From positions 744,001-808,000 of the forward strand of contig NZ_CP113925.1 of NCBI RefSeq assembly GCF_029392015.1: a stretch of DNA of 64,000 nt. Reading direction: 5' to 3'. Of this stretch, positions 55,460 to 62,016 are shown piece by piece. This stretch comes from Bifidobacterium sp. ESL0728 (lineage in GTDB: Bacteria > Actinomycetota > Actinomycetes > Actinomycetales > Bifidobacteriaceae). The translations under genes and the position numbers were made by a program. Position 1 is the stretch's first letter; each line of letters starts with the position of its first letter. The notes beneath the pieces were generated by a model. The model had not been told where the DNA came from. It searched no databases and was given only the letters and a program-made list of their open reading frames with translations.

Positions 55460-55969
55460 ATGTCCAATCACCCATACACCGTCATGACCGTCTGCACTGG
55501 CAATATCTGCCGTTCCCCGATGGCCGAGATCATTCTGCGCGCCAACTTCGAGGAACGCGGGTTGGGGAATAAGGTGCGTGTGATGTCCAGCGGTGTCAGC
55601 GACGAGGAACACAGCCACCCGATCGACCCACGTGCCGTGCGCGTGCTGCACCAGCGCGGATACGAGATTCCCAAGCATCATTTCGCGCACCGCATCACCG
55701 CCGAAGAAATTGACGAGAGTGACCTGTTCCTGCCCATGACCGCCTCGCACGAAAGGGGACTGCTTCGTCTGTTGCCATCCGACAAGAAACCTGAAGTACA
55801 TCTCTACCGCAGCTTCGACCCGAACCTGCCCAAGCCTGCGCCCGGCCACGAAAGCGACATCGATCTGGTCGACCCGTGGTACGGTGGCCCGCGCGATTTC
55901 GACATCGCCATCGACCAGATCGATGGCGTCGCCCCTTACATCGTCGATTGGGTCGCCAAGCAGCTCTGA
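55460..55969 (+). CDS. Low-molecular-weight protein tyrosine phosphatase
   Basis: 169 aa from the ATG at 55460 (ATG at 55439 possible). P-loop VCTGNICRSP with catalytic Cys12 and Arg18, and general acid Asp in DLVDPWYGG near residue 140. Dephosphorylates Tyr-phosphorylated proteins; in actinobacteria often linked to polysaccharide or envelope regulation. Single-gene unit with its own terminator. Confidence 0.93.
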   Translation: MSNHPYTVMTVCTGNICRSPMAEIILRANFEERGLGNKVRVMSSGVSDEEHSHPIDPRAVRVLHQRGYEIPKHHFAHRITAEEIDESDLFLPMTASHERGLLRLLPSDKKPEVHLYRSFDPNLPKPAPGHESDIDLVDPWYGGPRDFDIAIDQIDGVAPYIVDWVAKQL

Positions 55970-56033
55970 GTGGCTGCTTGGGCCTATAACTTCTAGGGAA
56001 CAAGGCTTGAGGACATCAGATCTTAGACATAGC

Positions 56034-56070
56034 AATACCCGGATTTGAACGAATCAAATCCGGGTATTAC
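56034..56070 (+). terminator. Terminator of the phosphatase gene
   Basis: Perfect 14-bp stem aatacccggatttg / caaatccgggtatt with a 7-nt loop. Confidence 0.8.
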
Positions 56071-56182
56071 GGTTATGCTGTTTAGATTTGTATTATGAAA
56101 ATCTCGATGAGAGAACTGCTGGAATCGGCAGCGATGCACCGATTTGCAGAGCTTCTTCTAAATTTCCCTTCTGAAACCTATA

Positions 56183-56263
56183 TCAGAAAAGCGTCGGAAT
56201 TGGGAAATAGGTGAAGAAATCCATAGCCCATTTTGCGAGATTCGTAACAACTTGCCAGAACAT
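56183..56263 (-). CDS. 26-residue hydrophobic peptide
   Basis: ATG at 56263, stop at 56183. Perfect Shine-Dalgarno aaggagg at 56269-56275, 5 nt from the ATG. The peptide begins MFWQVVTNLAKW and ends FPIPTLF: aromatic, hydrophobic, one Lys and one Asp, probably membrane-active or a signal peptide. The upstream promoter (TATAAT with 17-bp spacer) makes expression plausible. It does not match a bacteriocin, type I toxin or pheromone family that I can recall. Isolated in a 552-bp gene-free stretch. Confidence 0.6.
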   Translation of the reverse strand: MFWQVVTNLAKWAMDFFTYFPIPTLF

Positions 56264-56302
56264 AAGCACCTCCTTCGCTTTCTTCTTTGTAAGTGTACTT
56301 TT

Positions 56303-56331
56303 ATTATAAACCGATAATTAATATCAAATAA
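56303..56331 (-). promoter_or_regulatory. Promoter of the 26-residue peptide
   Basis: -10 TATAAT (56308 to 56303) and -35 TTATTT (56331 to 56326) separated by exactly 17 bp, in a strongly AT-rich stretch. The leader to the ATG is about 35 nt. Confidence 0.6.
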
Positions 56332-56521
56332 GAATTTCTTTCAGCATAATGCCATAACTATAGCGATTCGACGAAAAGTGGTGGATATGCTAAAGCGCTT
56401 CTGCCCGAACTTCTGACTTGAGAACAGCTCTGATTGGACATTTCATGCGCTAGATTACGGTATAGCTTCAAAAATCAAAAAGCCTCGAAACCGTTGTGAT
56501 TACTTGGTTTCGAGACCTGAG

Positions 56522-56597
56522 TGGTGGCTCCGAGCGGCATCGATCCGCTGACCTAACGATTTTCAGTCGTTCGCTCTACCAACTGAGCTACAGAGCC
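56522..56597 (-). tRNA. tRNA-Phe (GAA)
   Basis: 76 nt with encoded CCA. Acceptor ggctctg / cggagcc, anticodon stem cgact / aatcg region with loop containing GAA, D arm agctcagttggtagagc. Confidence 0.95.
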
Positions 56598-56818: not shown

Positions 56819-57445
56819 TTATATGGTATTGTCCGCCGTTTGTAATTCAAAGTCATAAAGATAATAGGTATAGTTCGTGTCTTCGTTGTCGTCGTCGGGG
56901 TCATCGTCGTCATCGTAGGGGTCGGAGTTGCAGTCCGATCCATGGCAGTCTTCATCGTCGGAATCTATATGGTTGAACGCATAACCGAACGCCGACACGA
57001 GCGCGATGACAACGATAATATCTAAAATCGTCAAAACCGCACCGATGGCGATTCCGGCGACGGCCATTCCCTTGCTTTTCTCTCCGCTGCGATTGATCTG
57101 AACCATCGCGACTATGGAAAGTGCCAGCCCGATAATCGGCACGAAGAAGGAAAGGATAAAGCCGATGACGCAAAGCGTGTTCCACTTTTGGTTTGGTGCC
57201 GGAGGATAGTAGTAACCCTGAGGCCCCATAGGCGGCATCTGGCTGGGCCCCGCGGCAGGTGGCATTGGTCCGGGCCCAGATGGCGGTACCGAACCATACG
57301 GTTGGTAATTCGGCATCTGCTGGTCCGAGCCGGCGTATTGGTATGGAGCCTGTGGTGCTTGCGGCCCCGTCTGCTGGCCTGCGTCGCCGTATTGGTAGGG
57401 AGGCTGCCCTTGTTGTGGGTTCGCGTTGAAATCGTTGTCGGTCAT
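56819..57445 (-). CDS. DUF4190 membrane protein
   Basis: 208 aa. Pro/Gln/Tyr-rich N-terminus (about 1-85), then two transmembrane helices (LCVIGFILSFFVPIIGLALSIVA and AVAGIAIGAVLTILDIIVVIA) around a basic loop QINRSGEKSKG, the DUF4190 signature. The C-terminal about 45 residues are extremely acidic with a Cys pair (DCHGSDCNSDP, DDDDDPDDDNED). Function unknown. Confidence 0.88.
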   Translation of the reverse strand: MTDNDFNANPQQGQPPYQYGDAGQQTGPQAPQAPYQYAGSDQQMPNYQPYGSVPPSGPGPMPPAAGPSQMPPMGPQGYYYPPAPNQKWNTLCVIGFILSFFVPIIGLALSIVAMVQINRSGEKSKGMAVAGIAIGAVLTILDIIVVIALVSAFGYAFNHIDSDDEDCHGSDCNSDPYDDDDDPDDDNEDTNYTYYLYDFELQTADNTI

Positions 57446-59287: not shown

Positions 59288-60460
59288 ATGACTACAATCG
59301 TTATTCTTGGTGCAGGTTACGGCGGTATGCGTACTGCGAAGCAACTTGTCAAGGCCAATGTTGACGCCGATATCATCCTGGTCAACAAGAATCCGTATCA
59401 TTATCAGTCCACCGAGCTGCACGAGGTGGCCGCCGGTACCAAGGAACCCGATCAGATTACCTTCGATGTGCGCAAGGCAGTGGATCCGAAGGTCAAAGTG
59501 GTCATCGACGAAGTCACCAAGGTCGACCAGGACGCCAAGAAGGTCGAACTAAAGAACGGCGAACCGCTTTCCTACGATTATCTGGTCAACGCTCTGGGCT
59601 TCGAGTCCGAGACGTTCGGCATCAAGGGGGCCGACGAAAACGGCTGGCCGCTGATCGACATCGATACGGCCGTCGCCGCGCGTAAGCATCTTGAGGATAC
59701 GCTGAAGAACTACAAGACCAGTCATGATGAGAACGACTTGCACGTCGTGGTCTGCGGTGCAGGCTTCACATCCATCGAGTATCTGGGCGAGCTGGTCTAT
59801 CGTCTGCCCGACATGGCCAAGGAATATGACTTCCCGCTGGATAAGGTCAAGATCGACTGCATCGAGGCGACGCCGAAGATTCTGCCGATGTTCGACCCGA
59901 AGCTGGCCGATTGGGGCGTCAAGTTCCTTGAGGACCATGGCGTCACGTTCCACGCAGGCACCCCGATCACCGAGGTCAAGCCGAATGCCGTGATGAGCAA
60001 CGACACCGCCTACCCGGCCAACACCATCATCTGGACTACCGGTGTGCACGGCAGCCACGTCATCGCGGATTCCGGTTATGACCAGAAGCGCAACCGCGTG
60101 GTCGTCGAGGACGATCTGTCGGTGAAGGGTCACCCCGAGGAGTTCCTCGTCGGCGATGTTTCCGCCGTCCCGAACCCAGACAACGGCCGTCTTTACCCGA
60201 CCACGGCGCAGATTTCCATCGCCGAGGCCGATACCGCCGCGGACAATATCGTTGCGCGCATCAAGGGGGAGCAGCCGAAGAAGTTCGTCTACAAGTCCCT
60301 CGGCACGCTTTGCTCGCTTGGACCCAAGACCGGCATCGCTGAAGTCGACATGGGCGGCCATTGGAAGCTCAAGGGCTCGAAGGCGTCTGTCGCCAAGAAG
60401 GCCGTCGCCGATCGTTCCGTCACCGAACTGACGGATGTCTCCGGCATCATGAAGGCGTAA
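59288..60460 (+). CDS. ndh: Type II NADH dehydrogenase (NDH-2), copy 1
   Basis: 390 aa. Single-subunit, non-proton-pumping NADH:quinone oxidoreductase at the membrane. N-terminal FAD fold VILGAGYGGMRTAK (about 5-18), NADH fold VVCGAGFTSIEYLGEL (about 153-168), FAD contact FLVGDVSAVP (about 287-296). The C-terminus is basic and amphipathic. Homologue follows at 60835. Shine-Dalgarno ggagggg. Confidence 0.92.
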   Translation: MTTIVILGAGYGGMRTAKQLVKANVDADIILVNKNPYHYQSTELHEVAAGTKEPDQITFDVRKAVDPKVKVVIDEVTKVDQDAKKVELKNGEPLSYDYLVNALGFESETFGIKGADENGWPLIDIDTAVAARKHLEDTLKNYKTSHDENDLHVVVCGAGFTSIEYLGELVYRLPDMAKEYDFPLDKVKIDCIEATPKILPMFDPKLADWGVKFLEDHGVTFHAGTPITEVKPNAVMSNDTAYPANTIIWTTGVHGSHVIADSGYDQKRNRVVVEDDLSVKGHPEEFLVGDVSAVPNPDNGRLYPTTAQISIAEADTAADNIVARIKGEQPKKFVYKSLGTLCSLGPKTGIAEVDMGGHWKLKGSKASVAKKAVADRSVTELTDVSGIMKA

Positions 60461-60548: not shown

Positions 60549-60834
60549 AAATTTGGCAATAATTATCGATTGATGTTTTAATGCGATTAATGGCGACGTA
60601 ATTTGACCTTTTGTCGCAAAAGTGAGCTTTTAGAACGGTTTTGGCCGCAAAAGAATGGCTGAGGCGTGATTTATCCCATAAAAAAATCGTTTTTTCGTTT
60701 TTTGCAGATTTTTTGGCTATTTTAATCGTTTTTTGTTCAGCTTTTCATATATTGTTGGAAAGTGTTGGCAATGATGGCGCTTGCTTCGTAAAGCTCCTCA
60801 TTTTGTGGTTAAGCTATAAGGAAAAGTGATTGGA

Positions 60835-62016
60835 ATGAAGAGAATCGTCGTTCTCGGCGCAGGTTATGCAGGTATGCGCACCGTTAAAAAATTAGCCAGT
60901 TCGGGTGTAGCCGCCCAGATTGTGCTGGTCAACAAAAATCCGTATCATTATCAGACCACCCAGTTGCACGAAGTGGCGGCTGGCACCAAGGAGCCTGCCG
61001 ACATTACCTTTGATGTTGCTCAGACATTTGCCAATAAGAAAAACGTTCAGGTAATCATCGATGAGGTTATTCGCATCGATCAGGACGCCAAAAGCGTTGA
61101 ACTCAGGAACAATGCTCCTCTTCAGTACGATTATCTGGTCAATTGCTTGGGCTTCGAATCCGAGACCTTCGGCATCAAGGGTGCCGACGAGAACGGCTGG
61201 CCGATCATCGACATCAACACCGCATTGGCGGCGCGCAAGCATCTTGAAGATACTTTGAAGCGTTACAAGACAAGCCATGATCCCAACGATTTGCGTATCA
61301 TCGTGTGTGGTGCCGGCTTCACCAGCATCGAGTATATCGGTGAGCTCGTTTATCGACTGCCACGTCTCGCCAAGGAATATGGCTTCCCCCTCAACCAAGT
61401 CAAGATCGACTGCATCGAGGCCAGCCCGAAGATTCTCCCGATGTTCGACCCGAAACTGTCGCAATGGGGTGTCAAGTACCTTGAGAAAAGGAACGTCACC
61501 TTCCATGTCTCCACTCCCATCACCGAGGTCAAGCCGAGTGCCGTGATGAGCAACGACAAGGAATTCCCGGCCAATACCATCATTTGGACCACCGGTGTGC
61601 ACGGCAGCCATGTCATTGCCGATTCCGGTTATGACCAGAAGCGTAACCGTGTAGTCGTCACTGATGACCTTCGTGTCAATGGGCTTCCGGACCAATTCCT
61701 GATCGGCGACGTTTCCGCCGTTCCGAACCCGAGCAACGGCCGGCTTTACCCGACCACGGCGCAGATTTCCATTGCCCAGGCCGATTGCGTGGCTGAGAAC
61801 CTTGTGGCGTTGATGAACGGCCAGCCCACCAAGAAGTTTGTCTTCAATGCTCTTGGCACTGTTTGCTCGCTTGGGCCTAAGGCAGGGATTGCATCGATTG
61901 ACATGTTTGGCCATTGGAATCTCAAGGGATGGATTGCCGGCGTTACCAAAAAGTTCATTGCTGATCGTTCCACTTTGGAGTTGACCAATATTCGTACTAT
62001 GCTTGAAGGTGACTGA
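60835..62016 (+). CDS. Type II NADH dehydrogenase (NDH-2), copy 2
   Basis: 393 aa from the ATG at 60835; the TTG at 60826 is an alternative. Same architecture as copy 1: VVLGAGYAGMRTVK, IVCGAGFTSIEYIGEL, FLIGDVSAVPNPSNGRLYPTTAQIS. The proteins agree over most of their length, consistent with tandem duplication. It lies directly upstream of cydA (45 bp), so NADH oxidation and O2 reduction are probably co-expressed. Confidence 0.92.
   Translation: MKRIVVLGAGYAGMRTVKKLASSGVAAQIVLVNKNPYHYQTTQLHEVAAGTKEPADITFDVAQTFANKKNVQVIIDEVIRIDQDAKSVELRNNAPLQYDYLVNCLGFESETFGIKGADENGWPIIDINTALAARKHLEDTLKRYKTSHDPNDLRIIVCGAGFTSIEYIGELVYRLPRLAKEYGFPLNQVKIDCIEASPKILPMFDPKLSQWGVKYLEKRNVTFHVSTPITEVKPSAVMSNDKEFPANTIIWTTGVHGSHVIADSGYDQKRNRVVVTDDLRVNGLPDQFLIGDVSAVPNPSNGRLYPTTAQISIAQADCVAENLVALMNGQPTKKFVFNALGTVCSLGPKAGIASIDMFGHWNLKGWIAGVTKKFIADRSTLELTNIRTMLEGD

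What the first reader, a model, noticed from the sequence alone, without database searches (positions are those of the whole stretch)
56183..56331. Unannotatable 26-residue hydrophobic peptide gene with near-ideal expression signals
AAGGAGG at optimal spacing, TATAAT with a 17-bp spacer and AT-rich upstream DNA converge on a 26-codon ORF (MFWQ...TLF) in a gene-free gap. Aromatic, hydrophobic composition suggests a membrane-active peptide, small regulatory membrane peptide or signal. Standard length cut-offs would miss it.
Basis: partly seen in the sequence, partly recalled or inferred. Interest (0 to 1): 0.7.

Follow-up and report, generated by a model that had tools for sequence, protein, structure and literature searches.

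The report
Hidden amphipathic membrane-peptide gene in Bifidobacterium
A 26-residue gene too short for normal annotation is real: four bee-clade Bifidobacterium species carry it at the same chromosomal spot, and it encodes a short helix with one greasy and one polar face that probably acts at cell membranes and changes its sequence quickly between species.

Summary
The ORF (56263..56183, minus strand; MFWQVVTNLAKWAMDFFTYFPIPTLF) with AAGGAGG and TATAAT is confirmed, and it is a conserved protein-coding gene. Orthologs occur at the same locus in three of 111 other Bifidobacterium genomes. G084 and G089 encode a 92%-identical peptide with dN/dS about 0.08-0.09; G083 encodes MFGQFFNAAVSAISAFLSYFPIVMPF. 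The clade lies near B. bohemicum/B. commune. The gene is absent from the same interval in at least eight relatives. No match was found in Pfam, NCBIfam, PHROGs, PADLOC, plasmids, phages or an order-wide genome sample.

The peptide is not just 'hydrophobic'. Residues 1-20 form a strongly amphipathic helix (moment peaks at 100 degrees; 0 of 20,000 shuffles as high, for each variant), neutral and leaderless. G083's version is 35% identical (dN 0.59 against 0.03 for the neighbouring gene, at similar dS) yet keeps hydrophobicity and the polar face; random mutation does this in 0.02% of trials. The gene has its own promoter, a palindrome in the promoter spacer and its own terminator, so it is not a leader peptide. 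Its interval is an accessory hotspot: G089 carries an IetAS defence system beside it.

Best reading: a stand-alone membrane-surface peptide, probably acting between cells. Target and activity are untested.

The parts
56183..56263 (-). 26-codon ORF plus stop, MFWQVVTNLAKWAMDFFTYFPIPTLF: residues 1-20 amphipathic helix (polar strip Q4, T7/N8, K11, D15, T18), then PIPTLF
   Evidence: Read directly; orthologs with purifying selection; helical moment
56269..56275 (-). Shine-Dalgarno AAGGAGG, 5 nt from ATG; AAGGAGGTGCTYATGTTC invariant in four species
56303..56308 (-). -10 hexamer TATAAT (TACAAT in G083)
56326..56331 (-). weak -35 position (TTATTT), 17-nt spacer
56313..56325 (-). operator-like palindrome GATA-N5-TATC inside the promoter spacer, kept in all four species; resembles a Fur 7-1-7 box in 12 of 14 positions (lead only)
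56330..56350 (-). further conserved upstream block ATTAYGCYNAAAGNAATTNTT
56169..56188 (-). small hairpin TTCTGA-TATAGGTT-TCAGAA that includes the stop codon, kept in all four species
56032..56070 (-). strong 17-bp hairpin (z = -8.2) ending the 3' UTR, probably a terminator shared with the convergent gene; same hairpin with changed but pairing bases in G083
   Evidence: terminator role inferred
56522..56597 (-). tRNA-Phe (GAA) bordering the variable interval
55463..55969 (+). convergent LMW phosphotyrosine phosphatase gene, other border of the interval
   Evidence: PF01451, 1.5e-28

Best explanation
This is a stand-alone, regulated gene of one bee-associated Bifidobacterium clade. It encodes a 26-residue peptide without signal sequence that folds into an amphipathic alpha-helix lying on a membrane surface, with a short aromatic/proline tail (YFPI..F). 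It belongs to an accessory cassette in a tRNA-Phe-linked hotspot. Its sequence diversifies between species while amphipathicity, start, tail and promoter stay fixed. The most likely use is as an exported membrane-active or signalling peptide acting between cells (competition or communication). Shown: the coding gene, its orthologs, computed amphipathicity, promoter and terminator anatomy, patchiness and diversification. Inferred: membrane binding, export and action between cells.
For: Same-locus orthologs in G083, G084 and G089 with intact frame and SD. dN/dS 0.075-0.093 against G084/G089. Hydrophobic moment of residues 1-20 is 0.50, 0.51 and 0.42 for the three variants, best angle 100 degrees, none of 20,000 shuffles as high. 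The G083 variant has dN 0.59 at dS 0.50, against dN 0.026 at dS 0.61 for the neighbouring phosphatase gene, yet keeps moment and hydrophobicity, which 31 random changes achieve in 0.02% of simulations. Conserved promoter and spacer palindrome. Own terminator about 20 nt after the stop in G084/G089. Absent from shorter intervals (six of 228-269 bp, one of 350 bp) in relatives. G089 carries IetA/IetS defence genes between the peptide and tRNA-Phe; G088 carries an ABC-transporter gene set in the interval.
Against: No transcript or protein data. No exporter, immunity or receptor gene travels with the peptide. The peptide has zero net charge, whereas many secreted antimicrobial helices are cationic. 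Only one diverged allele (G083) supports diversification, and omega of 1.18 on 26 codons cannot be called above 1. The moment of the full 26 residues is less extreme (3% of shuffles as high for own) because the tail is not part of the helix, and the 1-20 span was chosen after seeing the sequence.
Confidence: 0.5

Rival explanations
1. An intracellular small regulatory protein: the amphipathic helix docks on the inner membrane face or on one membrane protein and tunes it, made when the regulator at the spacer palindrome lets go.
For: Length, leaderless neutral helix and stand-alone regulated gene fit this class (SpoVM, 26 residues, is the best-known amphipathic example; literature located). Purifying selection between own and G084/G089.
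Against: Patchy presence (4 of 112 genomes), residence in an accessory hotspot with defence genes and heavy non-synonymous change in G083 are unusual for a protein with a fixed cellular partner.
Confidence: 0.27
2. A type I toxin: a membrane-depolarising peptide whose mRNA is held off by an antisense RNA. It would resemble TisB, an amphiphilic helix with a narrow polar strip of opposite charges (PMC8309996).
For: Size, amphipathic helix, K11/D15 on the polar strip, own promoter and terminator, lineage-limited presence.
Against: No sigma70-like promoter on either strand of the locus, no Rfam antisense family, the mRNA is not more structured than shuffles (z +0.46), and the SD is optimal. The charges are lost in G083.
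Confidence: 0.17
3. A leader peptide or attenuator for a downstream gene.
For: Short ORF with strong SD after a promoter; hairpin downstream.
Against: Nothing lies downstream in the same direction: the transcript runs into a terminator and a convergent gene. In G084/G089 the terminator follows about 20 nt after the stop. The peptide itself, not codon repeats, is under selection.
Confidence: 0.02
4. A chance ORF.
For: 26 codons is short enough to arise by chance.
Against: Conserved frame, SD and synonymous-biased change (0 of 50,000 simulations) in syntenic loci.
Confidence: 0.02

Closest known systems
Phenol-soluble modulins of Staphylococcus (including the newly found LspU, PMC12607899)
   Same: Short leaderless peptide predicted as an amphipathic alpha-helix; missed by annotation
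   Different: No sequence family match was found; a different phylum; not in a psm or agr setting; exporter (Pmt/AbcA-like) not identified; ends in YFPI..F
TisB-type membrane-associated type I toxins
   Same: Amphiphilic helix of similar length with a narrow polar strip; stand-alone transcript
   Different: No antisense RNA or inhibitory mRNA structure seen; open strong SD; strip uncharged in G083; toxicity untested
SHP/ComS hydrophobic pheromones of streptococci (Rgg/ComR partners)
   Same: Short hydrophobic unannotated ORF; promoter with palindrome and weak -35; diversifying sequence
   Different: No Rgg family protein in any of 112 Bifidobacterium genomes; no adjacent regulator; conserved amphipathic helix
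SpoVM-like membrane-surface peptides
   Same: 26 residues, amphipathic helix, no leader
   Different: Bifidobacterium does not sporulate (general knowledge); no sequence family match found

Membership tests
Phenol-soluble modulins | Short amphipathic alpha-helical peptide without signal sequence | tested here: met
   Hydrophobic moment test; sequence starts with the helix
Phenol-soluble modulins | Sequence membership in a curated family model | tested here: not met
   No Pfam or NCBIfam match at E up to 5-10
Phenol-soluble modulins | Export by Pmt/AbcA-type ABC transporters and surfactant activity | not testable with these tools
   -
Type I toxin-antitoxin | Antisense RNA gene overlapping or near the toxin | tested here: inconclusive
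   No promoter-like site on either strand, no Rfam match; the scan is only a consensus search
Type I toxin-antitoxin | Toxic on over-expression | not testable with these tools
   -
SHP/ComS - Rgg/ComR signalling | Rgg-family receptor in the genome | tested here: not met
   TIGR01716: 0 of 112 Bifidobacterium genomes; control Lactococcus lactis positive
Leader peptide/attenuator | Co-directional downstream gene controlled by translation of the ORF | tested here: not met
   Next gene is convergent; terminator in between
Fur-regulated gene | Fur-type box at the promoter, shared with iron-uptake genes in the same genome | tested here: inconclusive
   12 of 14 match to TGATAATNATTATCA (11 of 14 in relatives), but the best boxes elsewhere in G000 do not precede recognisable iron genes

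The most novel reading that the evidence does not exclude
The peptide is the first example of a family of diversifying, leaderless amphipathic peptides in bifidobacteria, a PSM-like effector or an Rgg-independent pheromone. It would be carried in a tRNA-linked defence hotspot, and its alleles (WQVVTNLAKWA type versus GQFFNAAVSAI type) would distinguish self from non-self among bee gut bifidobacteria.
Probability: 0.25. Interest if true: 0.7.

Novelty: new member of a known kind. Interest (0 to 1): 0.5.

Why it matters
Peptides this short escape gene finders. This one carries unusually complete evidence of being real: synteny, synonymous bias, and a physical property kept while its letters change. 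If it acts between cells, it would give bifidobacteria of bee guts a peptide weapon or signal of a kind I found described only outside them. Even if intracellular, it adds a small membrane-binding protein with a testable, regulated promoter.

Tried and rejected
Profile search of 396 order genomes: weak hits were pieces of long reading frames; G100's best hit (E 0.003) lies in the wrong frame of a larger coding frame. Exact pattern in 84,980 species genomes and in viral contigs: nothing. Profile in viral contigs: nothing; plasmids nothing, phages chance-level only. Rgg receptor: absent in all 112 genomes. Paralogs with the same SD/start block in the clade: none exact, only two-mismatch sites. 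Other copies of the promoter element (palindrome plus -10): besides the four same-locus sites, three one-mismatch sites elsewhere. Fur-regulon idea: the box resemblance is there, but the strongest boxes in the own genome lie near a zinc-ribbon protein gene, a glutamine-synthetase-like gene and a permease/MarR-like locus, not iron genes, so it stays a lead. RNA structure of the mRNA: no more stable than shuffles. Antisense promoter: none found. Rfam: only tRNAs above threshold. Structure prediction was not attempted: the single-protein minimum is 30 residues.

Full report
OBSERVATION. The consensus scan finds no full sigma70-type promoter because the -35 is poor. The ORF lies in the gap between tRNA-Phe (56522-56597) and a convergent low-molecular-weight phosphatase gene (PF01451).

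CODING EVIDENCE. Of 112 held Bifidobacterium genomes, four including the window's carry it. All four are at the same place: tRNA-Asp, tRNA-Phe, peptide, convergent phosphatase gene (in G089 two extra genes lie between tRNA-Phe and peptide). G084 and G089 encode MFWQIVTNLAKWAADFFTYFPIPTLF; G083 encodes MFGQFFNAAVSAISAFLSYFPIVMPF. Own versus G084: 11 base differences, 7 synonymous codons, 2 non-synonymous; no simulation of 50,000 with random changes altered so few residues. Nei-Gojobori dN/dS is 0.075-0.093. The chance-ORF reading is therefore excluded.

WHERE IT OCCURS. The same interval in relatives G082, G085, G086, G090, G092 and G025 is only 228-269 bp long and lacks the gene; G091 (350 bp), G087 (469 bp) and G088 also lack it. 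By title, relatives in the named collection include Bifidobacterium sp. ESL0784 and ESL0682, B. bohemicum, B. commune and B. bombi. The gene's presence does not follow the tree of the neighbouring genes (three changes needed; few strongly supported forks). In G089 the stretch between peptide and tRNA-Phe holds two genes matching the IetA and IetS anti-phage models (E 2e-65 and 1e-56). In G088 the interval holds an ABC-transporter ATPase and two membrane-protein genes. The interval is thus an insertion hotspot for accessory genes.

ANATOMY. Across the four species the 5' flank keeps ATTAYGCYNAAAGNAATT, a GATA-N5-TATC palindrome lying within the spacer, TTTAYAAT and AAGGAGGTGCTYATGTTC. Genus-wide, besides these four sites, only three other sites match the palindrome-plus-minus-10 block with one mismatch. 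A small hairpin, TTCTGA...TCAGAA, spans the stop codon in all four. Downstream, G084 and G089 end in a strong hairpin with a T tract about 20 nt after the stop. The own genome and G083 share a different 3' UTR of about 110 nt ending in a 17-bp hairpin (z -8.2), whose arms changed together in G083. So the own gene pairs a G084-like coding region with a G083-like 3' end, which points to recombination between cassettes (inference).

PHYSICAL CHARACTER. Residues 1-20 have mean Eisenberg hydrophobicity 0.41-0.56 and helical moment 0.42-0.51, maximal at 100 degrees; none of 20,000 shuffles of any of the three variants reached it. The polar residues Q4, T7/N8, K11, D15, T18 (own) and Q4, N7, S11, S14, S18 (G083) fall on one strip. 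The moment direction is nearly the same (109 and 92 degrees). Net charge is zero in both. Over the full 26 residues the moment is weaker (0.28, 3% of shuffles), consistent with a helix of about 20 residues followed by a PIPTLF tail.

DIVERSIFICATION. Own versus G083: 17 non-synonymous and 2 synonymous codons; dN 0.59 and dS 0.50, while the neighbouring phosphatase has dN 0.026 and dS 0.61. Residue change is about 22-fold faster than next door at ordinary silent divergence. Applying 31 random changes to the own gene gives a peptide as amphipathic and about as hydrophobic as G083's in 0.02% of trials (moment alone: 14%). Selection therefore seems to keep the physical form and the ends (MF.Q, YFPI, final F) while the middle changes. 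With one diverged allele, relaxed constraint on the middle cannot be separated from positive selection.

MECHANISM. Most likely the peptide is made when a regulator frees or activates the promoter, is translated efficiently from an open perfect SD, and folds on contact with a membrane. The diversification, patchiness and hotspot residence favour action outside the cell on other bacteria, as weapon or signal (confidence about 0.5). An intracellular membrane-docked regulator (0.27) and a type I toxin (0.17) remain. A leader peptide is excluded by gene order. Shown: gene, orthologs, computed amphipathic form, anatomy, patchiness. Inferred: membrane binding, export, target.

KNOWN FAMILIES. No match in Pfam, NCBIfam, PADLOC or PHROGs, no meaningful PDB relative, none in plasmids and only chance-level in phages, none credible in 396 genomes of the order beyond the window's own (that sample did not list G083, G084 or G089). 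Rgg-type receptors are absent from the genus. It works most like PSM-type peptides (compare LspU, PMC12607899) or TisB-type peptides (PMC8309996), but membership in neither was established.

REGULATION LEAD. The spacer palindrome matches the Fur 7-1-7 box (recalled from general knowledge) at 12 of 14 positions in the own genome and 11 of 14 in the relatives. Other good boxes in the own genome are not next to recognisable iron genes, so metal control is only an idea to test.

Noticed in passing
L181:914-4251 (G089 C1 about 682313-685650): A complete IetA/IetS-like pair (AAA ATPase and S8 protease) is inserted between tRNA-Phe and the peptide gene in relative G089.
   Followed up: partly
L182:353-3497 (G088): The same tRNA-Phe/phosphatase interval holds an ABC-transporter ATPase and two membrane-protein genes in relative G088.
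   Followed up: no
window 59288-60460 and 60826-62016: Two tandem, closely related NADH-dehydrogenase-like genes, also tandem in G089 (L181 7141-9902).
   Followed up: no
window 56822-57445 (-): DUF4190 membrane protein with a proline-rich N-terminus and a strongly acidic DDDD-rich C-terminal region, next to the tRNA pair.
   Followed up: no
window 56032-56070: Near-perfect 17-bp hairpin without a T tract between convergent genes, with compensatory changes in G083; probably a two-way terminator.
   Followed up: partly
L161:1500-1515 (G000 C1:1428684): Perfect 14/14 Fur-box palindrome upstream of a zinc-ribbon membrane protein ORF, next to a glutamine-synthetase-like gene.
   Followed up: no
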